Shown here: one piece after another, positions 1 through 46,266 of the stretch
Numbering within the stretch: the stretch's first letter is position 1
Layout of the letters: every line of letters begins with the position of its first letter
Virus record (IMG/VR): IMGVR_UViG_3300035156_000051
Coordinates: 1 to 46,266 of that record
Direction: 5' to 3' (one strand)
Source of the DNA: a virus
DNA: 46,266 bases
Translations under genes and position numbers: made by a program
Notes under the pieces: generated by a model
Databases searched by the model: none
What the model was told of the DNA's origin: nothing
What the model saw: only the letters and a program-made list of their open reading frames with translations

Positions 1-97
1 GAATGAACGCCAGTCCGCGCAGAACCTTGTAGATGAACAAGAAAGCTGGCTTGAAGCTGTCGCTTCCTGGATAGCCGCGGGTAAACCCCGGTCGTGA
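1..97 (+). CDS. 3' end of small acidic protein (same gene as 46078-46236)
   Basis: This is the duplicated 3' part of the 52-residue gene that starts at 46078, cut by the arbitrary linearisation. Its TGA stop (95-97) overlaps the GTG start of the next gene at 94 as GTGA, which suggests translational coupling. See the entry at 46078 for the whole protein. Confidence 0.85.
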   Translation, partial: NERQSAQNLVDEQESWLEAVASWIAAGKPRS

Positions 98-127
98 GCG
101 ACCTCGGCTATTGCCCCGAATGCGGGG
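1..127. repeat. 127-bp terminal direct repeat, left copy
   Basis: Bases 1-127 are identical to 46140-46266. The repeat ends exactly at the window end and is not placed at a gene boundary: it cuts through one small gene and the start of the next. A length of exactly 127 is a common k-mer size in short-read assemblers, so this is most simply the overlap left when a circular assembly graph is written as a line. A real terminal redundancy cannot be excluded from the sequence alone. The unique genome length is 46,139 bp. Confidence 0.95.
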
Positions 128-7133: not shown

Positions 7134-10100
7134 CGCTTTTCGTCCTTCGCCATCTTGCCCTTCGTGAGGCCCTGATACCAGTCGGCAATAGACTGTGGCT
7201 CTACCTCACCGCGCTTGTATTGCCAAAGGAATTTGGCGGTCGATCCTGGCTGCCCGAGCGGCGTATGCGTGGCAGCGCCGATCGCGTTGGCGAGACCCGG
7301 CACCGCCTGCGGCTCGAAATCCTTCTCGCCCTGCTGCACCTTGTAGAGCGTCGACGCGCTGCGCGTCATATCCTCAAAGGTTCGCGCGATCGGCGTGCCG
7401 CCGAATGATGCGTATTGCCCGATCATCGAACGCTCGCCGAAGGTTGCCGCGTCGCGCGCGAACGGGATGCCCGAGAACATCCCGAAGCCGACGTTGCGCG
7501 CCGCCCATTTAATCGTCGCCAGCGGCATCCCCTCGGGATCTTCCTTGTCTTCTTTCGGCCAATCGCCCGACAGCAGCGCGTCAGCGAGCATCTGCGCGAC
7601 GAGGAAGAAGAAGGTCAGGTTCGCCGCCTTGGCATAGTCGCCGCGCTTCACGCCGCGAGCGGCTTCCCACTGCGCGTTGAACAGGACGTTGAACGGGGTG
7701 TAGAACATGACGAACAGTTTCTGCGCCTCGCTACCCGGCGCTTGCCATGCCGACAGATCCTTCGCGCGTCCGCCGCCCTGGCTGGTGACGACCATCTGAT
7801 CGGCGTAGTTCGCCGCTTCCTTGTCCGTCATCCCTTCGTTCACGGCTTTCGCGTGCGCGGTCAACCATGTCGGGATCGCAACGATATGCAGATCGACCAT
7901 GCCGATATGCCACATCGACCACGCCGCCACCGTGTCGCGGTAGTTGTGCTTGCCCGCCAGCTTGCGAAACGCACTATCGGTCTCGACGCTGCTTTCGCGC
8001 AACCGTCGACGCATTTGCTCGCTACGCGAGAACACGAACTCGTGCGTTTCGCTCGCGCCGCCCGCCATCATCGCCGGGATCCCCATCAATGTGCGGCGCA
8101 TGTTGTTGACGAGCGGCAGCGTCTGCGTACCGCCGAGCCGCGCGACGCTATTCATAAGGCCGCTGACCTGCGCGACGCCGGTTGAAAACCGTAGCCCCAT
8201 ACCGACGACGGTGATCCCCTGCCTCGTGTAGCGTAGCACGCGCTCCATGAACTTCGCGCCGTCGAGATTGACGTAAGAAGTGATCTGACGTTGAAGCCAC
8301 GGCTGGATCTGCCGGCGGTACTCCTTGCCGAGCTTCAGGTCGATAATGCCCTTCACCCGGTCATCGCCGACGACGCGCATCACGTCGCGCGCATACTCGG
8401 CATACGAGACGCGGGTGATAACCTTCTCGACGTGATTCATCAAAATATGGTCGAGGCTATAGGTCATCGGCCCCGTCGCTTCGGTACGCGCGATCGTATG
8501 CCCCTTCGGCGTCGACAGCCCTGCGCGCTTGCCGAACAGATCATCGGCCGACTTGTCAGCGTTCTTTTCGGCGACGCCCGAACGATCGCTGTCATAGACC
8601 ACCGGCCAATACCCGCCGGCGAAGATACCGTGCGGCGTCTCGGCGGCGAGCGGCGTCACCTTCTCGGGCACGACACCCGACAGCGCGCGTTCGGTCTCGA
8701 CGATCGACGGCCATAGCCGTTCGACGCCATCCCACATCGCCTGAACGAATTGCCAGTCACCTGCGGTCAGTTCGCGGTTCAGCGCTTCGCGCAGCGCGGT
8801 GGGGTTCCAGCGTTCGCCCTTGGTCATCTTCTCCAGATTGGAGAGATTACCGGTATTAAGTGCGATCGCGAGCAGTTCTTTGCGCGTCACCGTTACCGGC
8901 TGCCCGAGTCGCGGATCGTCTTCGCCGAGACCGACGTTGAACGATAGTTCGGGGAGCATCACCAGTTCCTCAAGTCGACGCTGCTCCTTCGCCGTCATGT
9001 CGACATAACGCTGCGCGAGCGGCGTCAGCACGAGATCGCGAAGGTTCGCGCGCTTGTTCTCGGCTTCGGTGGCGCGGTGCACGAGCAGGTTCATCATCGG
9101 CCCGTTCTGGTTCTGCACATCCAGGTCGAGCGCGATGGTGCTGATCTTCAGCCCGCCAGCAACGACATCGCGCAACCCCCGGCGCTTCGTGTCTTCATTG
9201 AACGACTTCTTCGGCAGCGAGCGGGTCGGTAGCTGCCGGCCGTTGGCAACGATCGCGTTGACAACCTCGGCGAAGTCGCGTTCTTTCTGACCGTCGAGCA
9301 ACTTCTGCTTGTGCCGGCCGAGCGCCATCAGGCTATCGACCGCATCGCGAACGCCGAACAGTTCCTCGACCGTCACCCGGCTGTAATGCTGCTGATCGAT
9401 GGCGAGCCGCGCCGGTACAAAGACTTCGAACCCGGCAGCGGCGCGCTGTTCCGCCCACGCACGGAAACCTTCGAGCTCGTCAAGACCCTTTTGCGATGCG
9501 GCGCGGAAGCTGTAGCCCTCGAGCAACGCGTGAACCCGATCGAAATAATCCTGGTCGACCGACTGCATGGCGGCGCGCTTCGCGAGTTTGTTCATGCGCG
9601 CGACCACCGTGTCGATCTCGTCGGCGGCGGCTTTCGCCTCGACAAGCAGCGCGTGGTTCAGCATCTGCGCTTGCTTCTGCCGGAACGCCTCGTCGACATT
9701 GCCCTCCAGCATCGCCCCTTCGGCGAGCCGCGATGCCTTGGCGGCGGCACGCGCGTAGCGCTGCATCGCGGCTCGGCTGGCGACATCGTTGACGCGACCC
9801 GCCTCGACCTTGCGCTTCGCCCATTCCCGCGCAAGCCGGTACGGCGTCGCCGCGCCGCGGGTGCGCCGCGCCAGTGCGCGGCTTTCCGACGCGATGACCT
9901 CGCCCTGGCGATCGTTGTTGATCGCGGCGATCGCTTCCTCTTCGATTGAACCGTCGGTCAGCGGATCCTTCAGCCCTTGGTCGACGACCGCCGCTTCGAC
10001 TGCCTCATCGATCAGACGGTCGCGCAGCTGCCGCTTGTCACCGAGCGCGCGCATCGTGCGGGTCTGATCGCCGATGTCGAACAGCGCGTCCATCATCTCG

Positions 10101-13100
10101 GCACCCGAGGCGAACCCCGTCAGCGCGGCGACGTCATCGGCGTTGGTCGCGTCACTGCCGGCGATACGGATGTTCACCGGCAGCCGCGCTTCCGCGTCGT
10201 CGCCGTACCGCTCTTTCAACCATTCACGGTCGAGCCGTACCGGCATTTCGCGATCGTCGATGCGGCCGGTGCGCAGCAGCCGCAGCGCGCGAAAGCGCGG
10301 CTGATCGCTGATCGCGGTCGTGGCTTCGTCGCGGATCGTGCGACTCGTCTCGCGGTAGGCGCGTTCGCGCTGCTGCTTGATCTTCGCCATCGTGCGGAAT
10401 AGCAGCGCGTCGAAGGCGTCATTGCGCGATTGGTTGACCGTCGCCTGGTACGCGTCGAACTCGGCTTCGGTCATGTCCGCCTGCGCGGCATCAGTGAACA
10501 GCGCCTTCGCGTTCTGCTCGTCGGCATAGGCGTCGATCGCCTCTTGCGTCGCGAGCATCCGGTCCATGACCTGCCGCACCTCCGGTGTGATCGGTGCGCG
10601 AAGACGGCTGACGACTTCGTAGATCCGCAGCAGCCAGCCACGGAACGCCGTGAACGCGCCTTGCAGCGCAGACGATGGCGCCTTGCCTTCCATCGCATAG
10701 CGTTCGAACCCGCGCGCCCATAGCTCATGCGCTTCACGGGGAATGTTGCCGGGGGTTGGCGATGTCTCGTCGCCGTTCTGGTTCAGCGTCACCGACTGAG
10801 GTTCGCGGACCGGATGACCGTTCTCAGCAAACCACGCCTTCACGCTCTCCCAATCGGCGACGACGTCGGCAGGGGCGTTCGGCAGCGCGGCGTTCTTCTG
10901 CAATTCCTCGAGGAACAGATGCCCGGTCTCGTGGATCAGCGTCGACAGATCCGCGGTTTCGAACAACGTGATGACACTGCGATCGCCGTAGAGGGCGATC
11001 TGTCCGCGGGCGCCTTGGTCGTATTTGTTGACGGGCTGCGGTTCACGAATCATCGTCTCGCGTGTTGAAAAATTACGACCCGGCCCTGTGTTTTCTCTGA
11101 ACCCGAGCGACTTATAAAATTTGACGAGCGCCGTTTTCGACGCCTTCCTGCCATCGCCGATCGGCTCGGCGGTCAATGCAACGGTGCGGCCCTGCGCGTC
11201 GGCTTGCGCAAGGAACTGCTCCATCGCCGAACGGCCAGCGCCAGCGCGCCGTGCGCGTGGCTCGACATGCAGCAAGTCGAGTTTGATAGGCACGTCGGGA
11301 TCGCGCGAAATCTCATAGTCAATTTCGGCGGCACCGTTCTGCCAGATGCGATAGCCGTTATGCGCCGCGCCTTCAGTGCCTGGAATGGAAAAGTCGATAT
11401 CGCGATACGACTGATCCAGCGTCCGCTGCGCGCCGCTCGTATCCATCGACCCGCGCTTGAACTCGACCGGGTTCGCCGCGTGATATTCCTGCGCGGTCAT
11501 GCCGAGTCGCTTGCCCCACGCCTCACGCGACGCGGCGAATAGCTGCGCCTGCTTCTCGGCGGCGCCCTGCGTGAACCCCGCCGCCTTCAACTGGTCGCGC
11601 ACTTCCTCGTAGACGGCGACCGCGGGTTCTGCCGCCTCGGCTTCGTCCCGCGCTGCCGTCGCGATCTCTTCGCCGCGCGCTTCAATTGCCTTGGTGATCT
11701 CGGCACCTTCGGTGACAGACTGCCGCAGCGACAGCCCGCCAGCGCTCAACCGCGCATCGTCCTTCAGCGCTTCCCAAGCCGGCGTTCCCGCAAGCCGTGA
11801 CGCGACATCCGAAAGCGGCACCACCACGTCGCCACCCGTCGCCCGCGCCTCGTCAAGCTGGTCGCGCAACCCTTCGAAGAACCCGTCCTCATCCGCAAAT
11901 CCCTCCGACTGCATGTAGGTTTCGACCGCTTCGGCGGGCAGATAGACATGCTCGGCGGGATGGTTCTCTGCTGCCTGCTCGACGAACTGGCGAAACGCTT
12001 CGGGATCCCGGCCGCGCAGTTTCGAGTTCGCCGCCTGTGTCATGATGCCGTCGAGCGTCGCCGCGCCGCGCCGCGCATCCATGACGCGGTTCACGACATC
12101 GACCGTCTTCTCGGCACCGGCGATCGCGACGTTCGTCGACCCCACCGTCGCGGCAACGGCGAGCGCGGTGCGCGCTGCCGCCTCGGGCCGTTCCTTCAGA
12201 TACTCGCCGAACGTCTTGCCCTTACTCTGGTCGAGCAGCGCCCATTCGTTGAAATCCTGTAGCGCGGTGGCGGTCTGCTCGCCGACCTGCTCCGCGCCCA
12301 TGTTCTTCGCGAGCCGCTTGAAAAACGGCGTGCCGACCTTCGTATCCTTCAGGAAATTCAGAACCGGTACGGCTTCGGTCAGCACCTCGACACCCGCTTG
12401 CGCGGCGCCAAAATACGCAGCGTCGAGTGGCGCCTTACCCGCGTCGCGCGCCTGACCGTAGGACTGACCACCGGTGGAAAGCCCGAGCAGCCCGAGACCG
12501 GCAGCCGGTGCGCCGAGTAGTCCCGCGCCGAGCGCCGCCACCGATGACGGTACGCTCTCGATGCCTTGGTACAGCGACTGTTCGACGAACCCGCCATCGG
12601 TCGGGCGCAAGCGCTTCGCTTCCGCGCGCTGCGTTGCGATCAGCGGCTTCAACACGTTGCCGCGATCGGCGGCGCGGCGCTGCTCGGGCGTCGCATCCGA
12701 CATCGCATTGTAAATCAGTGCGACGGGATCGATCTGATCGCGTACCTCGCCGAGCGCACGCAGCCCCTGCGTCACCCCTTCGGCGAGACCGAACACACCG
12801 GCTCCGACTGCCCCGGCAATGTTCGACGGGATATCGCGGGCGCGCTGGAGAAACGACTTCGGCTGCGCAGCGGGCTTTGCATCCCAAAACGACTTGAACT
12901 GCTTGCTGATCGCGGCAAGCGTCGACGTGTCATCGTGTGCTACCGCAGCAGCGCGCGGGTCGGCAAGAAACCGTCCCACATTGGGATGCTCGGCGGCAAC
13001 CGCCGCGACGCGACGCTGCCGCGCCATCGCGTCGTAATTGCTGATCTCGTCCTGCGCGACCGCGGCCGGCACGCCGAACGATCGCTCATACTTGTTGGCG

Positions 13101-13270
13101 CGTGCCGCGACATCAGGGTTGTTGTCGGGCAGGACGTTGATCTGCGCGCGGCGCGCATCCTGGTCGGGGATAATACTGTCGTATTTGCTCGCGAGTTCAG
13201 CGGCGCGCGACGAACGCGCGTCGGGTGCTGCACGATTGCCAAAGAGTGAATCGTATCGGTTGTTCGTCAC
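7130..13270 (-). CDS. 2046-residue ejection/polyvalent protein with GNAT and zincin-like motifs
   Basis: The largest gene. The N-terminal 400 residues include small hydrophobic, glycine/alanine-rich segments (near 150-175 and 235-310) that could insert in membranes. A GNAT acetyltransferase domain lies at about 650-735, with HVEPRARRAGAGR (R674-R680 is the acetyl-CoA loop) and KFYKSLGF. A zinc metallopeptidase motif HETGH follows at 780-784. Next comes the block GFERYAMEGKAPS...PEVRQVMDRML known from phage polyvalent proteins, then long charged helical regions. Position and size match the large internal virion proteins of podophages that enter the cell with the DNA. Embedded enzymes could modify host proteins on entry; this is inferred. 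It overlaps both neighbours by ATGA. Confidence 0.8.
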   Translation of the reverse strand: MTNNRYDSLFGNRAAPDARSSRAAELASKYDSIIPDQDARRAQINVLPDNNPDVAARANKYERSFGVPAAVAQDEISNYDAMARQRRVAAVAAEHPNVGRFLADPRAAAVAHDDTSTLAAISKQFKSFWDAKPAAQPKSFLQRARDIPSNIAGAVGAGVFGLAEGVTQGLRALGEVRDQIDPVALIYNAMSDATPEQRRAADRGNVLKPLIATQRAEAKRLRPTDGGFVEQSLYQGIESVPSSVAALGAGLLGAPAAGLGLLGLSTGGQSYGQARDAGKAPLDAAYFGAAQAGVEVLTEAVPVLNFLKDTKVGTPFFKRLAKNMGAEQVGEQTATALQDFNEWALLDQSKGKTFGEYLKERPEAAARTALAVAATVGSTNVAIAGAEKTVDVVNRVMDARRGAATLDGIMTQAANSKLRGRDPEAFRQFVEQAAENHPAEHVYLPAEAVETYMQSEGFADEDGFFEGLRDQLDEARATGGDVVVPLSDVASRLAGTPAWEALKDDARLSAGGLSLRQSVTEGAEITKAIEARGEEIATAARDEAEAAEPAVAVYEEVRDQLKAAGFTQGAAEKQAQLFAASREAWGKRLGMTAQEYHAANPVEFKRGSMDTSGAQRTLDQSYRDIDFSIPGTEGAAHNGYRIWQNGAAEIDYEISRDPDVPIKLDLLHVEPRARRAGAGRSAMEQFLAQADAQGRTVALTAEPIGDGRKASKTALVKFYKSLGFRENTGPGRNFSTRETMIREPQPVNKYDQGARGQIALYGDRSVITLFETADLSTLIHETGHLFLEELQKNAALPNAPADVVADWESVKAWFAENGHPVREPQSVTLNQNGDETSPTPGNIPREAHELWARGFERYAMEGKAPSSALQGAFTAFRGWLLRIYEVVSRLRAPITPEVRQVMDRMLATQEAIDAYADEQNAKALFTDAAQADMTEAEFDAYQATVNQSRNDAFDALLFRTMAKIKQQRERAYRETSRTIRDEATTAISDQPRFRALRLLRTGRIDDREMPVRLDREWLKERYGDDAEARLPVNIRIAGSDATNADDVAALTGFASGAEMMDALFDIGDQTRTMRALGDKRQLRDRLIDEAVEAAVVDQGLKDPLTDGSIEEEAIAAINNDRQGEVIASESRALARRTRGAATPYRLAREWAKRKVEAGRVNDVASRAAMQRYARAAAKASRLAEGAMLEGNVDEAFRQKQAQMLNHALLVEAKAAADEIDTVVARMNKLAKRAAMQSVDQDYFDRVHALLEGYSFRAASQKGLDELEGFRAWAEQRAAAGFEVFVPARLAIDQQHYSRVTVEELFGVRDAVDSLMALGRHKQKLLDGQKERDFAEVVNAIVANGRQLPTRSLPKKSFNEDTKRRGLRDVVAGGLKISTIALDLDVQNQNGPMMNLLVHRATEAENKRANLRDLVLTPLAQRYVDMTAKEQRRLEELVMLPELSFNVGLGEDDPRLGQPVTVTRKELLAIALNTGNLSNLEKMTKGERWNPTALREALNRELTAGDWQFVQAMWDGVERLWPSIVETERALSGVVPEKVTPLAAETPHGIFAGGYWPVVYDSDRSGVAEKNADKSADDLFGKRAGLSTPKGHTIARTEATGPMTYSLDHILMNHVEKVITRVSYAEYARDVMRVVGDDRVKGIIDLKLGKEYRRQIQPWLQRQITSYVNLDGAKFMERVLRYTRQGITVVGMGLRFSTGVAQVSGLMNSVARLGGTQTLPLVNNMRRTLMGIPAMMAGGASETHEFVFSRSEQMRRRLRESSVETDSAFRKLAGKHNYRDTVAAWSMWHIGMVDLHIVAIPTWLTAHAKAVNEGMTDKEAANYADQMVVTSQGGGRAKDLSAWQAPGSEAQKLFVMFYTPFNVLFNAQWEAARGVKRGDYAKAANLTFFFLVAQMLADALLSGDWPKEDKEDPEGMPLATIKWAARNVGFGMFSGIPFARDAATFGERSMIGQYASFGGTPIARTFEDMTRSASTLYKVQQGEKDFEPQAVPGLANAIGAATHTPLGQPGSTAKFLWQYKRGEVEPQSIADWYQGLTKGKMAKDEKR

Positions 13271-31352: not shown

Positions 31353-31472
31353 TTAACGGCGGGAGCGTAGCCACTTCACGGCATCGTCGCAAGCCACACC
31401 GAGCGCGCCGCCGGTGAGCGCGATCGCGAAGCCGCCAGCGTAGACCCATAGGAACTCGGCAACGGTGGTCAC
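31353..31472 (-). CDS. Small membrane protein (39 aa)
   Basis: A short gene beginning with GTG in a GTGA overlap with the small terminase stop. The product is TTVAEFLWVYAGGFAIAL, TGGALGVACDDAV and KWLRSRR, giving one membrane segment and a basic tail. The overlap and the lack of another gene in this interval support it. The function is unknown. Confidence 0.6.
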   Translation of the reverse strand: MTTVAEFLWVYAGGFAIALTGGALGVACDDAVKWLRSRR

Positions 31473-31990
31473 GACAGCAGATCCTGGACGTCGGCGCCGC
31501 CCTGTACGCGCGCCTCAACGCGCTTCAGAAGCTCGGCAGCGCGGTCCGCGGCATCGGGCGCCGCGCTGCCGAGTTGCTTGCCGTCGGTGGTCAGGTCGAG
31601 GCGGGGGCCGTAGGTTTTGGGTTTGAGCATCTGCGCTCGCTTGATGCGAGCGTCATAGCGAAGCCGTGCTCGCTTGGGATCGTTGCGAGCCATAGCCGCC
31701 GCCAGCGCGTCGCCGGATAGCCCGTCGAGCGATATCACGTCATCACCGTCTGCGATTGCCTGCGCATCCTCTAGCGCGGCTTCGATGCCGCAATCTCGAG
31801 CACGCGCGAGTTCGTCGGCGAGTTGCTGATCCTTACGAAGCCAATCCCAGAAGGTCGAGCGATCCGGCATCGCGTCATCCGTCTTCAGGATCGTCGTCAC
31901 CGCGCGACCGGCGGCGACTTCACGAAACACTCGACGCGCAATGTCGTCGCGCTCGGCTTGTGTCCAAGTCGTCGAGATAGGAGCTGCCAT
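31469..31990 (-). CDS. Terminase small subunit
   Basis: A 173-residue protein with an N-terminal helix-turn-helix region (TQAERDDIARRVFREVAAGRA, then RSTFWDWLRKDQQLADELARAR) and a C-terminal KRAQMLKPKTYGPRLDLT segment typical of phage small terminases. It would recognise the packaging site and load the large subunit. It is the first gene of the late leftward operon and starts at the edge of the iteron-rich gap, which could contain its promoter and the packaging signal. Confidence 0.88.
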   Translation of the reverse strand: MAAPISTTWTQAERDDIARRVFREVAAGRAVTTILKTDDAMPDRSTFWDWLRKDQQLADELARARDCGIEAALEDAQAIADGDDVISLDGLSGDALAAAMARNDPKRARLRYDARIKRAQMLKPKTYGPRLDLTTDGKQLGSAAPDAADRAAELLKRVEARVQGGADVQDLLS

Positions 31991-32124
31991 GCCGCCGAAA
32001 TACGCCTTGTCGCGTCACCGCGCAAGCGCCTTGACACCGATCGGAAACGCGCGCAGCGTTGACCCGTCGCCACCACAGCCCCTGACCCAGCAACGCGACT
32101 TAGGACAGCCAGATTGCCCTAAAA

Positions 32125-32400
32125 GAACACCTCCGAAGGTGTTCATCGAGGTGTTCACCTCGCAGGTCGTTGAAATCTAACGAAAAAGAACACGTAGAAC
32201 ACCTCACAATCGTTTTCCCGGCCTTACGTGTGCGCGTGCGCGCGAGGCTACCTACCTCCTTTACCCTCTCTCTATCTACTCCATACCCTCCACCCTAGAA
32301 AGTGATTGTGAGGTGTTCTAGGTGGTCTAACAGGTATATTTTCAATGACTTAGAAAAAGAACACCTTCGCTCCTAGGTGTTCATCCGAGACGAGGTGTTC
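32125..32400. repeat. Iteron array GAACACCT / AGGTGTTC
   Basis: Exact copies lie at 32125, 32137, 32149, 32197, 32311, 32359, 32375 and 32393, with one 7/8 copy (GAACACGT) at 32188. The left group opens with GAACACCT-CCGA-AGGTGTTC, a perfect 8-bp hairpin. The right group has GAACACCT and AGGTGTTC eight bases apart and a further copy. AGGTGTTCATC(C)GAG is shared between the groups (32137 and 32375). The two groups face each other around a central tract, giving overall near-symmetry. Confidence 0.9.
32195..32320. repeat. Perfect 17-bp inverted repeat
   Basis: TAGAACACCTCACAATC at 32195-32211 and its exact reverse complement at 32304-32320 are 92 bases apart. Each contains one iteron, extended by the shared CACAATC. 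Between the arms lie TACGTGTGCGCGTGCGCGCG and a strand-biased pyrimidine-rich run (TACCTACCTCC, CCCTCTCTCTATC). The arms could bring the two iteron clusters together when bound by a protein. Confidence 0.9.
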
Positions 32401-32425
32401 ACCCCCAACCGGTGAAAAATACCCG

Positions 32426-32454
32426 TTGACGGCATCAACCAAACGGTTTATATG
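32426..32454 (+). promoter_or_regulatory. Sigma70-like promoter P1 with embedded operator-like half-sites
   Basis: TTGACG (32426-32431), a 17-base spacer and TATATG (32449-32454). The spacer ends in AACCAAACGGTT, an imperfect palindrome found in similar form at the other rightward promoters. Transcription would start about 20 bases before the ribosome site of the gene at 32482. Confidence 0.8.
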
Positions 32455-32481
32455 CCTGTTCAACTACAACGGAGATACGAC

Positions 32482-32700
32482 ATGACTAGTGATGAAATGA
32501 ACTTCACCACCACCGACGGTCAGTTCAACGCGCGTATCCGCCGGCTGCAGACCATGACGATCTCCTTTAACGAAACCGCACAGCGCTTCGTCGTTCGCAA
32601 CGACAGCGACGACCGGTTGTGCGGCTCGGGCTTCGTCAGCGTCGACGAGGCAGTGAAGTCGTGCAAAAACGAAGACGAACGGCGCTATCGCATCTGGTGA
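32482..32700 (+). CDS. Small early protein of unknown function
   Basis: A 72-residue protein with ATG at 32482 and GGAG eight bases upstream, directly after promoter P1. Segments are NFTTTDGQFNARIRRLQTM, QRFVVRNDSDDRLCGSGF and VDEAVKSCKNEDERRYRIW. The alternating charged and hydrophobic pattern suggests a small beta-alpha fold. No family is recognised. As the first gene after P1 it may be an early host-takeover factor; that is inferred from position only. Confidence 0.75.
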   Translation: MTSDEMNFTTTDGQFNARIRRLQTMTISFNETAQRFVVRNDSDDRLCGSGFVSVDEAVKSCKNEDERRYRIW

Positions 32701-32768
32701 TCGCCTGATTCCCCGAGACCCCGCGATCGTGGTATCACGGGGCGACGATGGCATCAGGAGAGAATAAG

Positions 32769-33038
32769 ATGACCGACGATCTGCTATCCCGCGCTGAAAT
32801 GCTGACCTTGGTGACGGGCTGCACCACACGTGAGCAAATCTCCGCCGCTGCCGCTGCTGCGGGTTTAACCGTCGGCGCTAAAAAGGTTCGCCTCATATAC
32901 GAGACAGCGAACGAGATGTGGCGCAACGGCGAGCCGATCCGTCACTTCCGCACGCTCGGCGGCCACGTCACCTTCATCGATACCCCCAAGCCGATTAGCA
33001 AGCGCAAGGCTCGCCGCCTTCGTGGACGCGCGGCATGA
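32769..33038 (+). CDS. Small basic protein of unknown function
   Basis: An 89-residue protein. ATG at 32769 follows GGAG; an ATG at 32748 in frame lacks a ribosome site. It contains RAEMLTLVTGCTTREQISAA, a possible helix-turn-helix, then KKVRLIYETANEMWRNGEP and a basic KRKARRLRGRAA tail. DNA binding is plausible. A hairpin (CCCCGCGAT...ATCACGGGG, one mismatch) at about 32716-32739 lies upstream. It overlaps the next gene by ATGA. Confidence 0.7.
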   Translation: MTDDLLSRAEMLTLVTGCTTREQISAAAAAAGLTVGAKKVRLIYETANEMWRNGEPIRHFRTLGGHVTFIDTPKPISKRKARRLRGRAA

Positions 33039-33247
33039 GCGCCGACCGCTTCTTCCGCCCGACCACCGCCTACACGGCGAGCGACGCCGACCCGCACGCG
33101 CTCCAGCGCGCTTGGGACGCCGAGGAAGCCGAATGGCTCGACGAGGCGCCACCGGTCGCGCCGCGAGTTCGCTTCGCCACCTGGAGCGTCTGCGCGGTCG
33201 TCGGCACGATGTTCTGGACAGCGGTGGTGATGTTCTTTATCGGCTAA
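33035..33247 (+). CDS. Small protein with C-terminal membrane anchor
   Basis: A 70-residue protein. Residues of about 48-69 are hydrophobic (WSVCAVVGTMFWTAVVMFFIG), forming a tail anchor; the rest is polar and acidic (AEEAEWLDEAPP). It overlaps the previous gene (ATGA) and is the last gene of this short unit, followed by an intrinsic terminator. The function is unknown. Confidence 0.7.
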   Translation: MSADRFFRPTTAYTASDADPHALQRAWDAEEAEWLDEAPPVAPRVRFATWSVCAVVGTMFWTAVVMFFIG

Positions 33248-33277
33248 GGTCTAGCTCGTCACTTCAGCAGCACCTCA

Positions 33278-33314
33278 CCCCGTCACCGCGAAAGCGATGG
33301 CGGGGTTTCTTTTT
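33278..33314 (+). terminator. Intrinsic terminator with GAAA loop and T-run
   Basis: CCCCGTCACCGC and GCGATGGCGGGG pair (one G-T, one mismatch) around a GAAA tetraloop and are followed by TTTCTTTTT. It ends the rightward unit 32482-33247. The T-run lies inside the 3' end of the convergent HNH gene. Confidence 0.88.
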
Positions 33315-33699
33315 GCTCTAGCCACGCCGGCGGGTAATAGAACGGCACCGCGTCGTCCGCTATCTCGCCGACAGGTGGCTGCGGCAGCAATCCGACCTGC
33401 CGCCGGATCCACTGATATTCGCGGTTCGCTTCCGGCGTCACCGCTTGGACGTGATGCACGCACAGTGTTTCGGGGCCGTGCGGGCAGCAATGATCGACTT
33501 GCATATCGTTGATTTCCTGCCCGTGAATATGTTTTGCCGCCCACCGGTGCGCGTACCAGCGCCGCCTCTCGAACCAGAACGCACCATAGCGCTGCGAATG
33601 CCCACGACCGGCGGTCGTGCCGCCGATCCACATCACACAACCCGTCAGCGGATCGAAGGCGCAATATTTCAAGAACCGTGCCAGCGCGACATCCGTCAT
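33283..33699 (-). CDS. HNH endonuclease
   Basis: A 138-residue protein with an HNH/zinc pattern: VDHCC (D69-H70), C80-VHH and the final N92 in ANRE. The upstream segment CVMWIGGTTAGRGHSQRYGAF is typical of small phage HNH proteins that precede the metal motif. The ATG at 33699 overlaps the helicase stop; the frame extends to a TTG at 33714 without support. Such proteins may act as homing endonucleases or help DNA packaging. Its C-terminus is encoded over the terminator of the opposing operon. Confidence 0.82.
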   Translation of the reverse strand: MTDVALARFLKYCAFDPLTGCVMWIGGTTAGRGHSQRYGAFWFERRRWYAHRWAAKHIHGQEINDMQVDHCCPHGPETLCVHHVQAVTPEANREYQWIRRQVGLLPQPPVGEIADDAVPFYYPPAWLEQKETPPSLSR

Positions 33700-35930
33700 G
33701 GTGCTTCGAACCAATGGCGTACCCGAGCCGACCCGACCTGGCGCGACACGAACCGCAACTTGCGCATCGCGATACCGACCTGCGTCGACACCGACCGGTC
33801 AGGCTTGCCGCTTGCCGCGCCAATCGCAACCGCGATGTCGTGGTTCGTCAATCCCTCACCCGTCAGCCGGTCCATCTTCGCTCGCGGCTTCTCGCCGCTG
33901 ATCGATGGCGTCTCCAGCCAGCGCATGATGAGCGGGACATAGCTGTCATCGGCCTTGAACGCGTCCTGTTCCGTCGGCGCCAGTCGCTCGGCGTCCTGCC
34001 ATGCGATGCCGTCAAGCATGAACGCGATAGCACCTTCCGCCCATAGCTGCTCCCGGTCGCGCACGATCGCGTCGACATCGATCGGACCCGCCACGCCTAC
34101 CGTCGTCGGCAGCCACCGACGCTCGCCGGTGGGATCGTCTAGAAAGTCATCGCGGTTCGTGGTGCCGAAGAACACCGACCGGCGCAGGTACGTCGACGCG
34201 AACTCCACATATTTTGGCGTCCACTTGTCGCCCGATTTCGTGATCCACGCCTTGATGCTCTCGGCGTCGCGCGACTTCAGCCCGCGCAGTTCCTCGAGCT
34301 CGTTGACGAGCGTCCCTCGCATCAGTCGCGCGGTGTCGTCGTCACGTACCGACATGTCGATCGTTGCGTAGAAGTCGGGCGACGGCACTAGCGCGCGGAT
34401 CGCCGACGTTTTGCGCAGCCCTTGTTCGCCGAACAGGATCGGCACCATGTCGGCCTGAATACCCGGCTCCAGCACGCGACCGGCGAGCGCGGTCCAGATA
34501 TAGCGCGATACCGCCGACGCGTAGCCGAAGCCGTCGTCGCGGACGCCCATATAGGCGGCAAGAAACCGTTCGACGCGCGGCACGCCGTCCCACGCCAGCC
34601 GCTGTAGCCATTCCCGTGCGCTGTCGAACTGGCAATCGTCGGCAGCCTTGCGCACCCACCGGCGAAGAGTCTCGTGCCCTACCGAATCAACGCCACGACG
34701 ATGCAGCGCGATCTCCAGGTTCACATAGTCGACGTCGCGGAACTCCCGCCACTGCGGCGGATCCTGGCGCGCCGGCGCCCACATGATCGCACCGCGGAAC
34801 ACGTCATAGCCGAGCCGAACGCCGGTGAAGTCAGGCAGCCGCAGCAGCTTGTTCAGGTTGTCCGCGTTGGCTTCGATTTTGCCGTTCTTGTCGCGGTCGA
34901 GTCGCGGCAGGTCGCCGATCTCTTCGGTCAGCATCAGCACGTCATGCGATACCGTGTCGGCCGGCAGCACGACTTCCGCCGCCCGCAACGGCAACGCCGC
35001 GAACCCCGCACCGATATACCCCGTCGCGACCTGGTAGTCGTGGTCGTCACGGCCCATGCAATGCGCGTGGAGGCACTTGACGTGGCCGCGCTCATACCCG
35101 CCAGTGCCGGCAAGGAAGTACGCCGTCGACGTTTCGCCGCTGTCCGATGTGTGTTCGCTTTCGAACGGGCAGCGGATGTAGAGCTCGCCGTCACGACCGG
35201 TGTCGTAGACGTCCCAATGCTCGGCGAGCCATAGCCCGAAACTGTCGGTCGTCGGCCCGATGTCGAGATCCGCAGCCGCGGTACGCCGCTGACGCGCTAT
35301 CGTGGGTTCGGCTGTCGCGAACAGCGCGACGAGCGTCGACCATACCGCTTCGAGTTCGTCATCGGTCAGCGTCGGGATCGCGGCCGGCAACCCGTTATCG
35401 CAGTCCCACGCATAAGGGACGCCGCTATCGTGATGGCCGCTGGCGACGAACTGCTGACCGTCCCCTAAGAACTCGATGATGCCGCCCTCGACCGGGATGA
35501 CGCGCTTCGGCATCTCGCCAGCGTAGCGAAAGGCGAATAGCCGCTTGCCGCTATTGCCGCGGTAGCGCTTCGGCAACGCGATGCCGCCGAGCGTGCCGAC
35601 GATCACCGCCTCGACCGCGTCCGCGGCAGCCGGATCGGGAATATCGACATCGATCGCCCGCACGGTGCGGCATTGCAGCGACAACGCGTAATCGGGTTCG
35701 CGCGCCCACCGCTCCACGGCATCGCGCGTAGTGACACGCTCCGTCCACTTGCCGAGCCCCACGACTTCGCGGTGCCCGTCATAGACGCTCGGCGTCTTGC
35801 CGACCGCTTTCATGGTCGAGCGCTGCGCGATGACGGCGTTCGGGTTGGCGACGATAGGCAGCAGGTCGGCGGTAAGGTTTAGGGTATCGGCAAAGTGTTT
35901 CCACGCAGCCTCGGTGGCGCCGTAGCGCAT
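33696..35930 (-). CDS. Primase-polymerase / VapE-type helicase fusion
   Basis: A 744-residue replication protein. The N-terminal prim-pol domain shows D94-V-D96 in RAIDVDIPD and the conserved SGHHDSGVPYAW. A zinc-ribbon-like CPF..H...C..H C block follows at about 255-300. The C-terminal half is a VapE/D5-type ATPase with Walker A GEQGLRKTS (K507), ELEELRGLKSRDAESIKAW, and the downstream FFGTTNRDDFLDDPTGERRW. It would prime and unwind at the origin. It lies in the leftward early operon, away from the polymerase genes. ATG at 35930 follows CTGGAGAACGCT. Confidence 0.9.
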   Translation of the reverse strand: MRYGATEAAWKHFADTLNLTADLLPIVANPNAVIAQRSTMKAVGKTPSVYDGHREVVGLGKWTERVTTRDAVERWAREPDYALSLQCRTVRAIDVDIPDPAAADAVEAVIVGTLGGIALPKRYRGNSGKRLFAFRYAGEMPKRVIPVEGGIIEFLGDGQQFVASGHHDSGVPYAWDCDNGLPAAIPTLTDDELEAVWSTLVALFATAEPTIARQRRTAAADLDIGPTTDSFGLWLAEHWDVYDTGRDGELYIRCPFESEHTSDSGETSTAYFLAGTGGYERGHVKCLHAHCMGRDDHDYQVATGYIGAGFAALPLRAAEVVLPADTVSHDVLMLTEEIGDLPRLDRDKNGKIEANADNLNKLLRLPDFTGVRLGYDVFRGAIMWAPARQDPPQWREFRDVDYVNLEIALHRRGVDSVGHETLRRWVRKAADDCQFDSAREWLQRLAWDGVPRVERFLAAYMGVRDDGFGYASAVSRYIWTALAGRVLEPGIQADMVPILFGEQGLRKTSAIRALVPSPDFYATIDMSVRDDDTARLMRGTLVNELEELRGLKSRDAESIKAWITKSGDKWTPKYVEFASTYLRRSVFFGTTNRDDFLDDPTGERRWLPTTVGVAGPIDVDAIVRDREQLWAEGAIAFMLDGIAWQDAERLAPTEQDAFKADDSYVPLIMRWLETPSISGEKPRAKMDRLTGEGLTNHDIAVAIGAASGKPDRSVSTQVGIAMRKLRFVSRQVGSARVRHWFEAP

Positions 35931-35954: not shown

Positions 35955-36200
35955 TCAGGCGCGATCGGCTTCCATCGCCGCCGCGATATCGGGCTTCACG
36001 AGTTCCCGAAGCGGGACACCGTAGAGAACCTTGCATTCGCGGGCGCGCTCAAGCGGGAGCCACCCCTGCCCGATCCACTTGTGTACCGCCTGCGTGGAAA
36101 CGCGCAAGCGCGCGGCGAGCTCGGGCCTGGCCGCGATCGGTGGGGTGCGGCCTTCGCCGTCGGACGCCGCCGCCTTCAGGACTTTCTCGATACCGGTCAT
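35955..36200 (-). CDS. YdaS/Cro-like HTH regulator
   Basis: An 81-residue protein. A helix-turn-helix is clear: RPELAARLRVSTQAVHKWIGQGWLP then LERARECKVLYGVPLRELV, close to the YdaS/Cro family of phage regulators. It is a candidate to bind the palindromes in the rightward promoters or the iterons. It overlaps the next upstream gene by ATGA and precedes the primase-helicase. There is no CI-type repressor with a C-terminal protease domain in the window. Confidence 0.8.
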   Translation of the reverse strand: MTGIEKVLKAAASDGEGRTPPIAARPELAARLRVSTQAVHKWIGQGWLPLERARECKVLYGVPLRELVKPDIAAAMEADRA

Positions 36201-36400
36201 TTCGATTCCTTGTTCTTGTGCGGGACTACCCCGCGTTCGAAGCCGAGTGCATGTGCGAGATCGAACGGCACGCCTGGTCGTTTGCCCGCCATGAACTCAA
36301 TAGCGGCCGGCCGGTTGACGTTGTGGACTTCGCACCAGCGCTTCATGCTCGGGCGATACGGTTGCGCTTTCGCGTAAGCGCGAAATTGCTCGACGTTCAT
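36197..36400 (-). CDS. Small putative DNA-binding protein
   Basis: A 67-residue protein: VEQFRAYAKAQPYRPSMKRW, CEVHNVNRPAAIEFMAGKRP, then VPFDLAHALGFERGVV. The central part resembles a helix-turn-helix in small phage regulators. It overlaps both neighbours (TAATG, ATGA), so it is co-translated with the HTH protein. The family is not identified. Confidence 0.65.
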   Translation of the reverse strand: MNVEQFRAYAKAQPYRPSMKRWCEVHNVNRPAAIEFMAGKRPGVPFDLAHALGFERGVVPHKNKESK

Positions 36401-36684
36401 TAGTCATCTCCCTTCGGCATATTGGGGGTGGAGATTAGATGGTTGCGGACAGCAAGACCGAGGGGGGTTAGGCGGTACTCGGTAACGCCGTGCCTCTTCT
36501 GGAGGAGGAATAGCACCCGGCAGCCGAGTGGCTTCAACCCGAGCCACAGACGACGGGCGCGGTTGTAGCTAACCGGACGTTTCCATTCTTCGGCGTGGTG
36601 CGCGATCTCTTCGCGTGCCGCCTTCGTCAGCTTGCCCGCGATGCTCGCGATCTCCGCTACGTCCTTCTCTGTATGAGAGGTCAT
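36400..36684 (-). CDS. Winged-helix-like regulatory protein
   Basis: A 94-residue protein. The second half, RARRLWLGLKPLGCRVLFLL followed by HGVTEYRLTPLGLAVRN, has the look of a winged helix. The first half is a charged helix (KLTKAAREEIAHHAEEW). It may be a regulator. The position among HTH genes supports this, but no family is recognised. Confidence 0.6.
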   Translation of the reverse strand: MTSHTEKDVAEIASIAGKLTKAAREEIAHHAEEWKRPVSYNRARRLWLGLKPLGCRVLFLLQKRHGVTEYRLTPLGLAVRNHLISTPNMPKGDD

Positions 36685-38562: not shown

Positions 38563-39049
38563 TGTACGGACCTCCCACCGTGCATGCCGGGATGCCGTTG
38601 TCGTGATCGTAGTTTGGCGCTGTGCGGGCGACCTCTTCCGGCACATGCAGGATCGTCTCGCCCATGATCCGCGACCCGTCGTTCGCCTCCTGCACTAGCC
38701 GATGCCCGCTCGCCGTCGTGCGACCCGGGCTATCGGCAGCACTGTTCTCGCCCCATTGAGCGCCATCCTTGCGGCCGGGGTGCATCGCTTCGATCATCGC
38801 GAAGTTGGCGGCGTCGGCAAGGAAGTGCTTGTTGCCGGTCTGCCGGTACTTCGACATGCGAGCGCGCACATCGGACGCAGCGTCGAACTTGAGCGGGTAG
38901 GCATCTGCGACCCGGCCATGCTTGTGGAAGCTGACCATCATGTTGCTCATCATCTGAACGACAAACTCAGGATCAAACTCGGTGATTGGCACCCCCGCGC
39001 TCTCGACATAGCTGCGCATCGCCGCGACTGCGGTTTCTTTAGGTGTCAT
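38549..39049 (-). CDS. Hypothetical protein
   Basis: A 166-residue protein. MTPKETAVAAMRSYVESAGV, VVQMMSNMMVSFHKHGRV and YRQTGNKHFLADAANFAMIEAMHPG suggest a helical domain; the last block (HFLADAANFAMIEAMHP) recurs in phage proteins of unknown role. It overlaps its neighbours by ATGA and by 14 bases. Confidence 0.7.
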   Translation of the reverse strand: MTPKETAVAAMRSYVESAGVPITEFDPEFVVQMMSNMMVSFHKHGRVADAYPLKFDAASDVRARMSKYRQTGNKHFLADAANFAMIEAMHPGRKDGAQWGENSAADSPGRTTASGHRLVQEANDGSRIMGETILHVPEEVARTAPNYDHDNGIPACTVGGPYNDLA

Positions 39050-40077
39050 GATTGGTGCTCCTGATTAAGCGCCTTGATGGCAAGGGCTGCGAGCACATCC
39101 TTCGCGATGCCCCGCATGCCGTGGGTTGTGCTGTACTGCGTCCCGCCGCTGTAGTTCGCGATACGCGTCAGGCCGTCTCGCATGATCTCGGCCGCGTCGT
39201 CCGGCGTCGCGTCGGGCGCGTTGGCGACGAGGGCCGCGGCACGGTAGCAATCCGCATACGTGATCTTCGCTCCACCCCCCCAACTGCAATGCACCGTGTC
39301 AGGGGGATCGTGAGGAAAGTTCGCCAGACCTTTCACTACGGCCGCGGAATAAGCCGCAAAGGGGGCAAGCGCGGCTCGATACCGCCCGACCGCACCGTCA
39401 GGCCGCAGCCGCTCCCCCTCTACGGACGTAGGATCGGCGGGCTTGGGGGTGGCGGGCAGCGGCGAGTGCTTAGGTTTCGCCGCCTGCTTTGCGCGGATCA
39501 CCTCGACCTTCGTCCAGATGCGCGCCAATTCGCGCTCGGCCGCGTCGTGCATGTCCAGCCCGTTCGCGAGGCATAGTGCGGCGAGCGTGACCATGACGCC
39601 GCCCACCTCCTGATCCGGCTCACCAATGTCCCGCCCGTAAACGTAATCGACAAGCTGATGAGCCTCGCTCGCCGTGCAGCCACACGACTGCACAAGCTCT
39701 AGCGCTTCCTCAAGGAACCGATAATTGCGTTCCTCGCGATCGCCCGCAATCATCTCGCCGAAGCACGCTATCAGCCATGGCTGCACTCGCGCTTGAAACG
39801 TCGCCTCCCCCATCGACTGTTCGGCTATCTCGGGAGAAGGGGTCGGGGTGTAGGCGATGACGTCGTAAGGCGTTGTCGCGCCCTGTACGATAGGCTCGCC
39901 GTCTACTCCCACGCCCCACGGATGCTGCCACGATGCAATATCCAAGCCGGGCAAGATTTTGCCGTTGCGGAACATCACCATTCCGCCATCCCAATCCGCA
40001 GGTGCAGCATCGCCACCACTCCACAGCTTCATACCGGCGGGTATCTCTACCCCGCCTCCTCTGATCTGGTCGGTCAT
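39046..40077 (-). CDS. MazG-like NTP pyrophosphohydrolase domain protein
   Basis: A 343-residue protein. Residues of about 110-200 match phage MazG-like (all-alpha NTP-PPase) proteins: RNYRFLEEALELVQSCGCT (E123, E124, E127), LVDYVYGRDIGEPDQEVGGV and ELARIWTKVEVIRAKQAAKP. An unknown N-terminal domain precedes it, and a C-terminal region (GRYRAALAPFAAYSAAV) follows. MazG enzymes hydrolyse (d)NTPs or (p)ppGpp and are used by phages to shape host nucleotide pools. ATG at 40077 overlaps the 34-residue gene. Confidence 0.82.
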   Translation of the reverse strand: MTDQIRGGGVEIPAGMKLWSGGDAAPADWDGGMVMFRNGKILPGLDIASWQHPWGVGVDGEPIVQGATTPYDVIAYTPTPSPEIAEQSMGEATFQARVQPWLIACFGEMIAGDREERNYRFLEEALELVQSCGCTASEAHQLVDYVYGRDIGEPDQEVGGVMVTLAALCLANGLDMHDAAERELARIWTKVEVIRAKQAAKPKHSPLPATPKPADPTSVEGERLRPDGAVGRYRAALAPFAAYSAAVVKGLANFPHDPPDTVHCSWGGGAKITYADCYRAAALVANAPDATPDDAAEIMRDGLTRIANYSGGTQYSTTHGMRGIAKDVLAALAIKALNQEHQS

Positions 40078-40178
40078 AGATCGTCCCGCAGCTTGGCGAG
40101 GCGCGCGGTTTCGGCCTTCTGCTCGGCGATGTTCCAAGCGAGAAATTTTTGCCGCCACCACTGTTTCAGAAATCGCAT
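40074..40178 (-). CDS. Small basic protein (34 aa), first gene of leftward operon
   Basis: Reads MRFLKQWWRQKFLAWNIAEQ then KAETARLAKLRDDL. GGAG precedes the ATG at 40178, and the stop overlaps the next ATG (ATGA). Tryptophan- and lysine-rich helix. It is the first gene after the divergent control region. Confidence 0.65.
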   Translation of the reverse strand: MRFLKQWWRQKFLAWNIAEQKAETARLAKLRDDL

Positions 40179-40242
40179 AGCGTGTCTCCAGATGCCATAA
40201 ACTACCCGGTTGATCGCATATCCGATTGCGCGATGCAACCCC

Positions 40243-40271
40243 TTGACAGCATAAATCGGATGGTTGATATC
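40243..40271 (+). promoter_or_regulatory. Sigma70-like promoter P2 in divergent region
   Basis: TTGACA (40243-40248) and GATATC (40266-40271), 17 bases apart. The spacer ends in AAATCGGATGGTT, a diverged form of the operator seen at P3 and P4. An inverted ATCCGATT at 40220-40227 pairs with AATCGGAT at 40255-40262, which could form a second operator between the two divergent units. Confidence 0.75.
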
Positions 40272-40299
40272 GGTCGGCGTTCAACCTGGAGAACGAACA

Positions 40300-46077: not shown

Positions 46078-46236
46078 ATGGACGACGCCTGGAAAGAATA
46101 CGAGGCCGACTTCAATGCGATGTCGGATGAAGAGATCGAGAATGAACGCCAGTCCGCGCAGAACCTTGTAGATGAACAAGAAAGCTGGCTTGAAGCTGTC
46201 GCTTCCTGGATAGCCGCGGGTAAACCCCGGTCGTGA
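46078..46236 (+). CDS. Small acidic protein (52 aa), complete copy
   Basis: A 52-residue protein, MDDAWKEYEADFNAMSDEEI, ENERQSAQNLVDEQESWLEA and VASWIAAGKPRS, strongly acidic and helical. TGGAG lies 7 bases before the ATG. Acidic small proteins of this kind can be DNA mimics or host-enzyme inhibitors, but nothing here shows that. It is followed by the nuclease gene (GTGA overlap). Its 3' part is repeated at 1-97. Confidence 0.75.
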   Translation: MDDAWKEYEADFNAMSDEEIENERQSAQNLVDEQESWLEAVASWIAAGKPRS

Positions 46237-46266
46237 GCGACCTCGGCTATTGCCCCGAATGCGGGG
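46140..46266. repeat. 127-bp terminal direct repeat, right copy
   Basis: Identical to 1-127. It closes the genome into a circle or concatemer. Confidence 0.95.
46233..46266 (+). CDS. 5' fragment of VRR-NUC gene (same as 94-513)
   Basis: GTG at 46233 begins the same nuclease read in full at 94-513. The fragment is cut by the end of the window and is not a separate gene. Confidence 0.85.
   Translation, partial: MSDLGYCPECG

What the first reader, a model, noticed from the sequence alone, without database searches (positions are those of the whole stretch)
31991..32481. Iteron-rich divergent gap: candidate replication origin or master operator
Eight exact and one near copy of GAACACCT/AGGTGTTC lie in about 280 bases, in both orientations, in two clusters around a pyrimidine-rich tract, in the only gap above 300 bases in the genome. 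Local AT content is higher than around it. Such density of an 8-mer is very unlikely by chance. Candidates are an origin bound by a phage initiator, an operator array for one of the HTH proteins at 35955-36684, or the packaging site, since the small terminase gene adjoins it.
Basis: partly seen in the sequence, partly recalled or inferred. Interest (0 to 1): 0.78.

Follow-up and report, generated by a model that had tools for sequence, protein, structure and literature searches.

The report
Phage replication origin of satellite type
The repeats are very probably the DNA replication start site of a full-size tailed phage, recognised by the tail end of the phage's own primase-helicase; this layout has been described for phage satellites, and the repeat sequence and the protein appear to have changed together across many phages.

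Summary
Eight exact and two one-mismatch GAACACCT sites lie at 32125-32400, where 0.59 exact sites are expected in the whole 46-kb window. They are ordered: viewed along the nearby primase-helicase gene they read >>< >> [106 bp] << >><.

Sixty-four distinct primases of this family (33696-35930 here, Prim-Pol plus VapE helicase) carry such an array on the 3' side of the gene. It lies within about 100 bp of the stop codon in 58, with different repeat words in different lineages. The three closest genomes, this one included, share word and layout but hold the array 0.8-1.7 kb away. The word covaries with the predicted winged helix at the primase C terminus, not with its helicase or primase domains. 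The top structural match is the staphylococcal-island initiator PriRep1 bound to DNA.

Best reading: the replication origin of a full-size BPP-1-like phage, bound by the primase C terminus. It works like the Rep-ori of SaPI/PICI satellites, an organisation published as unknown in any other replicon. It departs from that type: displaced from the gene, spacer not AT-rich, an extra outer trio.

The HTH operator and packaging-site readings are not supported. No replication or binding experiment was possible.

The parts
32125..32400 (.). candidate replication origin: 8 exact + 2 near iterons, core word GAACACC(T)
   Evidence: layout
32359..32400 (-). outer iteron trio on the primase side (sites 32359+, 32375-, 32393-; reads >>< along the primase strand); inverted pair followed by TTTTT, terminator-like in the primase direction
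32311..32327 (-). core iteron pair (32311- exact, 32320- near) pointing into the spacer
32205..32310 (.). 106-bp core spacer (candidate unwinding/loading segment): 55% GC, purine-rich on the primase strand, with a TAAGGYCGGGAAAACG block shared with L010
32225..32244 (.). 20-base run of alternating purine and pyrimidine, the only run of 16 or more in the genome; longer runs at the same place in L009 (28) and L010 (36)
32188..32204 (+). core iteron pair (32188+ near, 32197+ exact) pointing into the spacer from the terminase side
32125..32156 (-). second outer trio on the terminase side (32125+, 32137-, 32149-); inverted pair folds as a UUCG-loop hairpin followed by UUUU in the primase direction
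33696..35930 (-). primase-helicase, proposed initiator: Prim-Pol (aa 61-186) + VapE-like helicase (aa 442-656)
33699..33863 (-). predicted C-terminal winged helix (about aa 690-744; helices 696-702 and 712-724, wing strands 727-731 and 738-742), proposed iteron reader
31469..31990 (-). terminase small subunit gene flanking the origin
32482..33247 (+). three small genes of unknown function, opposite in direction to the primase, between origin and primase 3' end

Best explanation
The array is the phage's replication origin. The C-terminal winged helix of the phage's own primase-helicase (33696-35930) binds GAACACC iterons. Convergent tandem iterons on either side of the 106-bp spacer would seat two helicase assemblies facing each other; they open the spacer and load, and the fused Prim-Pol domain primes synthesis. 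The outer trios add initiator sites, and their inverted iteron pairs also look like transcription terminators pointing in the primase direction. Shown here: the ordered array, its conservation, its linkage to the primase gene, and residue-level covariation with the winged helix. Inferred by homology to SaPI/PICI Rep-ori and SCC Cch2: binding, melting, helicase loading and priming.
For: Density far above chance. Two relatives at 70-73% primase identity keep the same word and layout. Of 119 distinct primase-plus-downstream regions, 109 carry an array above shuffles; median score 7.6 downstream, 4.0 upstream, 3.4 shuffled. In 58 of 64 dereplicated cases the array starts within -60..+100 bp of the primase stop. 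The usual layout is >>< >>> [spacer] <<<. All 64 spacers are lower in GC than their locus and purine-rich on the primase strand. Iteron distance follows the C-terminal winged helix after controlling for helicase, linker and spacer (partial r 0.33, p 0.001), and the linker shows nothing. The top covarying columns are in the recognition helix and wing. Among close relatives, Phe versus Trp in the wing pairs with A versus C before ACC (Fisher p 4e-6). The best structural match is PriRep1 with dsDNA, 7pds, E 2.9e-22 (by sequence 9.6e-52). SaPI Rep helicases recognise iterons directly 3' of rep with their C-terminal domain (PMC7581432).
Against: In this genome the array is 1.3 kb past the primase stop with three opposing genes between. 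The spacer is only modestly AT-enriched (55% GC). The first finder missed the L009 array in a 1.6-kb window because it lies at 1.7-2.0 kb. No GC-skew turn at the site. No binding, depth or plasmid data exist. Mantel permutation values are not corrected for phylogeny beyond the helicase control, and adjacent DNA can covary through linkage. The F/W rule has one exception (APSE-1) and weakens outside the enteric group.
Confidence: 0.87

Rival explanations
1. A replication enhancer or incompatibility site bound by the primase, like P4 crr, with initiation elsewhere in the genome.
For: P4 crr is an iteron cluster just 3' of the alpha gene and is separate from its annotated origin; the same finder detects crr.
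Against: No second cluster of the word anywhere in the window. The core has a conserved spacer with strand asymmetry, as expected of a melting site. In PICIs such a site together with rep drives plasmid replication (PMC6092414).
Confidence: 0.07
2. An operator array for a phage repressor or activator (HTH proteins 35955-36684).
For: A CI-like HTH protein is encoded nearby; the array lies between divergent genes.
Against: No copies at the HTH genes themselves. The array tracks the primase 3' end and covaries with its winged helix. No sigma-70-like promoter found in the gap.
Confidence: 0.02
3. The packaging (pac/cos) recognition site of the small terminase.
For: The small terminase gene adjoins it, also in L009 and L010.
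Against: In an enteric relative the same kind of array is followed by antiterminator Q. The word changes with the primase winged helix.
Confidence: 0.02
4. Transcription terminators only: inverted repeats that insulate divergent operons.
For: The outer trios fold into hairpins followed by T runs in the primase direction; 40 of 91 loci have at least 4 T after the trio against 14 of 91 at control places.
Against: Explains only the inverted pairs, not the tandem core iterons, the spacer, or covariation with a DNA-binding domain.
Confidence: 0.02

Closest known systems
SaPI/PICI Rep-ori (staphylococcal and Gram-negative phage-inducible islands)
   Same: VapE-type Prim-Pol/helicase initiator, two iteron sets flanking a spacer, 3' of rep, C-terminal recognition (PMC6092414, PMC7581432); top structural match PriRep1 7pds
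   Different: Full-size tailed phage with its own terminase; array displaced 1.3 kb past three opposing genes; spacer 55% GC with alternating purine-pyrimidine tract; a second outer trio on the far side
Phage P4 alpha / crr / ori
   Same: Short iterons (GGTGAACA) in both orientations; crr directly 3' of the initiator gene
   Different: P4 has a separate annotated origin far from alpha; the window primase matches VapE (PF05272) and Prim-Pol in the scans made here, and its word differs
SCCmec Cch2 and its putative origin
   Same: Self-loading helicase whose C-terminal domain binds direct repeats downstream of its operon (PMC7581432)
   Different: Only three AAGTG iterons, separate polymerase-primase, not a phage
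Vibrio PLE RepA and its origin
   Same: Initiator DNA-binding domain and iterons covary between relatives (PMC8263062)
   Different: Unrelated initiator (RepA_N), N-terminal reader, semi-palindromic repeats of about 30 bp
Phage lambda O / ori
   Same: Iterons with an unwinding segment bound by a phage initiator
   Different: From general knowledge: iterons lie inside the initiator gene and O loads host DnaB through P; here the array is outside the gene and the initiator is itself a helicase

Membership tests
PICI/SaPI-type Rep-ori | initiator of the VapE/Pri-Rep helicase family | tested here: met
   PF05272 E 2.3e-53 and PF09250 E 1.3e-7; 7pds by sequence 9.6e-52 and by fold 2.9e-22
PICI/SaPI-type Rep-ori | two sets of short iterons flanking a central segment | tested here: met
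PICI/SaPI-type Rep-ori | central segment AT-rich | tested here: not met
   window spacer 55% GC against 62.6% genome; the mean over 64 relatives is 36%
PICI/SaPI-type Rep-ori | origin immediately 3' of the initiator gene | tested here: not met
   1.3 kb away with three opposing genes between; met in 58 of 64 relatives
PICI/SaPI-type Rep-ori | C-terminal domain of the initiator recognises the iterons | tested here: inconclusive
   predicted winged helix and covariation; no binding test
PICI/SaPI-type Rep-ori | rep plus ori drives autonomous replication | not testable with these tools
   needs a plasmid maintenance assay
PICI (the satellite element) | satellite that depends on a helper phage for its virion | tested here: not met
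   46-kb genome with 127-bp terminal repeat and its own large and small terminase
P4 alpha/crr | P4-type iteron GGTGAACA and P4-alpha type initiator | tested here: not met
   word is GAACACCT; Pfam hits are VapE and Prim-Pol
Repressor operator array | word present at the regulator's own promoter | tested here: not met
   no exact copy between 32.4 and 45.6 kb and no one-mismatch copy between 34.8 and 39.4 kb

The most novel reading that the evidence does not exclude
The C-terminal wing of these phage primases reads the iteron by a simple, partly readable code, so origin specificity can be predicted from protein sequence. In the enteric subgroup, Phe versus Trp sets A versus C before ACC, and two neighbouring wing residues go with the preceding bases (KC GGAA, GC GCAA, LM GTTA, NY GCTA, mostly VQ/VL GTAA). 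Full-size tailed phages of several bacterial phyla then use a satellite-type Rep-ori with rapidly switching specificity.
Probability: 0.6. Interest if true: 0.72.

Novelty: new variant of a known kind. Interest (0 to 1): 0.56.

Why it matters
[quoted passage not shown] Finding it in full-size phages (a BPP-1-like phage, Caulobacter Rauchviruses, Yersinia YeP5, APSE-1, Kosakonia Kc259, Pseudomonas Haddon, Marinobacter PS3, Enterococcus phiFL4A) changes that picture and bears on where satellites got their replicons. It also gives ready-made origin predictions for phages whose origin I found no mapping for, BPP-1 included. The natural series of initiator-iteron pairs with near-identical helicases makes origin specificity directly testable. 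Switching of specificity may reflect escape from origin-targeting rivals, as shown for PLE and Odn (PMC8263062), though that is untested here.

Tried and rejected
GC skew as an origin test: no turn at the array, dominated by coding strand. Rfam over 31500-33800: no match. Promoter scan of the gap: none. Near DNA search of phage records: no match, so relatives had to be found by protein. Scan of genome contigs with the primase: no relative. The plain 7-mer survey missed degenerate arrays and was replaced by a one-mismatch finder. That finder also returns arrays far downstream that are probably coding repeats (L032, L262, L280, L289), left out of the covariation set. BPP-1 did not beat shuffles by score (4.0 against 4.4), though its four exact sites have the core layout. 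Bacteroides BC669P1 has no array. Coding overlap of iterons with the primase 3' end was checked as a confounder and removed: one locus dropped, result unchanged. Linkage was checked with linker and spacer controls. The PriRep1 paper itself is not held.

Full report
What is there. The 8-mer GAACACCT occurs ten times in the window, eight of them within 276 bases at 32125-32400; 0.59 are expected in the whole window and no shuffle of 100 reached ten. Two more sites with one mismatch, 32188+ and 32320-, complete the array. Viewed along the strand of the nearby primase gene the order is >>< >> [106 bp] << >><. The two inner pairs point into a spacer at 32205-32310. The spacer is purine-rich on the primase strand and contains the only run of 16 or more alternating purines and pyrimidines in the genome, 32225-32244. 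The window starts and ends with the same 127 bases, so the genome looks complete at about 46.14 kb.

The neighbourhood. The array lies between the small terminase gene (31469-31990, minus) and three small plus-strand genes, beyond which ends the minus-strand gene 33696-35930. That gene encodes a Prim-Pol domain and a VapE-like helicase. The large terminase is 52% identical to that of Bordetella phage BPP-1, and the closest named relatives by primase are Caulobacter Rauchviruses and Yersinia phage YeP5.

Relatives. Two IMG/VR genomes with primases 73% and 70% identical (L009, L010) carry the same word in the same order, 1.7-2.0 kb and 0.8-1.1 kb past the primase stop. Alignment of the three shows a conserved core: iterons, CACAATCACTTTCTAGGGTGGAGG, a variable middle with alternating purine-pyrimidine DNA, CGTAAGG, iterons. 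More distant primases have arrays of other words at their 3' ends, for example GTAACAAC in L012, AGACAACC in YeP5 and GTTCCCAC in L046.

Survey. From 295 loci I took 119 distinct primase-plus-downstream regions. A one-mismatch 8-mer finder beat ten shuffles in 109. Median scores were 7.6 downstream, 4.0 in a matched upstream stretch and 3.4 in shuffles; downstream beat upstream in 100 of 111 pairs. Of 64 dereplicated primases with a core layout, 58 have the first iteron within -60 to +100 bp of the primase stop. The commonest order is >>< >>> [57-65 bp] <<<. All 64 spacers are lower in GC than their locus (mean 36% against 57%) and all 64 are purine-rich on the primase strand (mean 61%). Full-size phages with much more distant primases (Kosakonia Kc259, Marinobacter PS3, Enterococcus phiFL4A, Pseudomonas Haddon, Acidovorax ACF1) also show arrays 3' of the gene; Bacteroides BC669P1 does not. 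As a positive control the finder recovers P4 crr.

Who reads the iterons. AlphaFold2 with 35 relatives gives the primase a mean pLDDT of 87. The last 50 residues form helices 696-702 and 712-724 followed by two strands 727-731 and 738-742, which I read as a winged helix. Foldseek's best match is PriRep1 with dsDNA, 7pds (E 2.9e-22), followed by NrS-1 Prim-Pol and SaPI5 primase-helicase; 7pds is also the only PDB sequence match. Distance between iteron words correlates with distance in the C-terminal domain after controlling for the helicase (partial r 0.36, permutation p 0.0005), but not with the helicase or Prim-Pol once the C terminus is controlled for. The strongest single columns are 737, 736, 712, an insertion after 732, 730 and 731. 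Removing the locus where iterons overlap the codons in question changes nothing material. Along the protein the signal rises at 705-738, with one unexplained peak of similar size at 505-524. Because origin and gene end are neighbours, linkage was a concern. Adding the linker (660-699) and the spacer plus flank as controls leaves partial r 0.33 (p 0.001), while the linker itself gives 0.01. Among pairs with helicases at least 85% identical, winged-helix distance is 0.13 when the word is the same and 0.32 when it differs; the linker shows no difference.

A partial code. In the enteric subgroup the wing reads GK-x-x-[RK]-[VIL]-[WF]. KC or KS goes with GGAACCAC, GC with GCAACCAC, LM with GTTACCAC, NY with GCTACCAC, VQ/VL/VS/VC mostly with GTAACCAC, MT-F with GTACCAAC, MT-W with GTACCCAC, KM-F with GTCCCAAC, KQ-W with GTCCCCAC, QQ-F with AGACAACC, and QI/QQ-W with AGACCACC. 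Counted once per distinct wing, Phe pairs with A before the AC(C) in 7 of 7 and Trp with C in 22 of 23 (Fisher p 4e-6). The exception is APSE-1; five wings were left out because the register of their word was unclear. This grouping was noticed in the data and then counted, so the p-value is descriptive. The window's own wing (SRQVGSARVRHWF) is shared in essence with L009 and L010, which have the same word. The rule does not carry over cleanly to more distant relatives.

Terminators. The inverted pair in the outer trio is followed by a T run in the primase direction more often than control places: at least four T in 40 of 91 loci against 14 and 14 of 91. In the window both trios fold into hairpins (-18.9 and -19.2 kcal/mol), the second well beyond shuffles (z -3.4), the first not (z -1.3). 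So the trio may double as the terminator of the primase operon in many of these phages; this is inference.

How it works, and what is inferred. [quoted passage not shown] PICI origins have two iteron sets flanking an AT-rich segment immediately 3' of rep, and rep plus ori maintain a plasmid (PMC6092414). By analogy the window primase would bind the convergent iterons, open the spacer, load as two facing helicases and prime with its Prim-Pol domain. The array, layout, conservation and covariation are shown; every biochemical step is inferred.

Comparison and verdict. It works like a PICI-type Rep-ori. As a member it fails two defining features in this genome: the spacer is not AT-rich, and the origin is not immediately 3' of the gene. 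It is also not in a satellite. I therefore call it a new variant of a known kind. Fillol-Salom et al. [quoted passage not shown] within the open-access papers searched I found no report of it in full-size phages, but subscription papers were not searchable. The window's own feature is a solid origin prediction of a largely known type; the wider interest lies in the phage-wide pattern and the specificity series.

Noticed in passing
window 1-127 and 46140-46266: Identical 127-base terminal direct repeat: the record looks like a complete, circularly mapped genome of about 46.14 kb.
   Followed up: partly
L289 (IMGVR_UViG_3300050138_000232), 1.4-1.6 kb 3' of its primase: Eleven CGCATTAC-like copies (1412-1592 past the stop) at exactly 18-base spacing plus one more; probably a coding tandem repeat.
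   Followed up: no
L097 (BPP-1) about 7020-7125: Bordetella phage BPP-1 has GTTTGCCTC pairs facing each other across about 70 bases between bbp28 and bbp27: a candidate origin for the model DGR phage.
   Followed up: partly
spacers of many enteric relatives (e.g. L083, L054, L057): A shared block AACCCCATATATATATATAAGTCG...GGGAAAGGTTAGAAA inside the spacer, conserved although the iteron word changes; GGRAAAGG in 26 of 64 spacers. Possibly the unwinding or loading element.
   Followed up: partly
downstream of the right iterons in many relatives (L083, L038, L028, BPP-1): A recurring TTTTTGCAYGTTG-like sequence after the array; role unknown.
   Followed up: no
primase residues about 505-524: A second rise of covariation with the iteron word inside the helicase domain, far from the winged helix.
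   Followed up: no
window 7130-13270 (-): A 2046-aa ORF, the largest in the genome, not examined.
   Followed up: no
window 39046-40284 (-): Protein of unknown function matching PHROGs 8593 and 14118 over a 120-135 aa stretch only.
   Followed up: no
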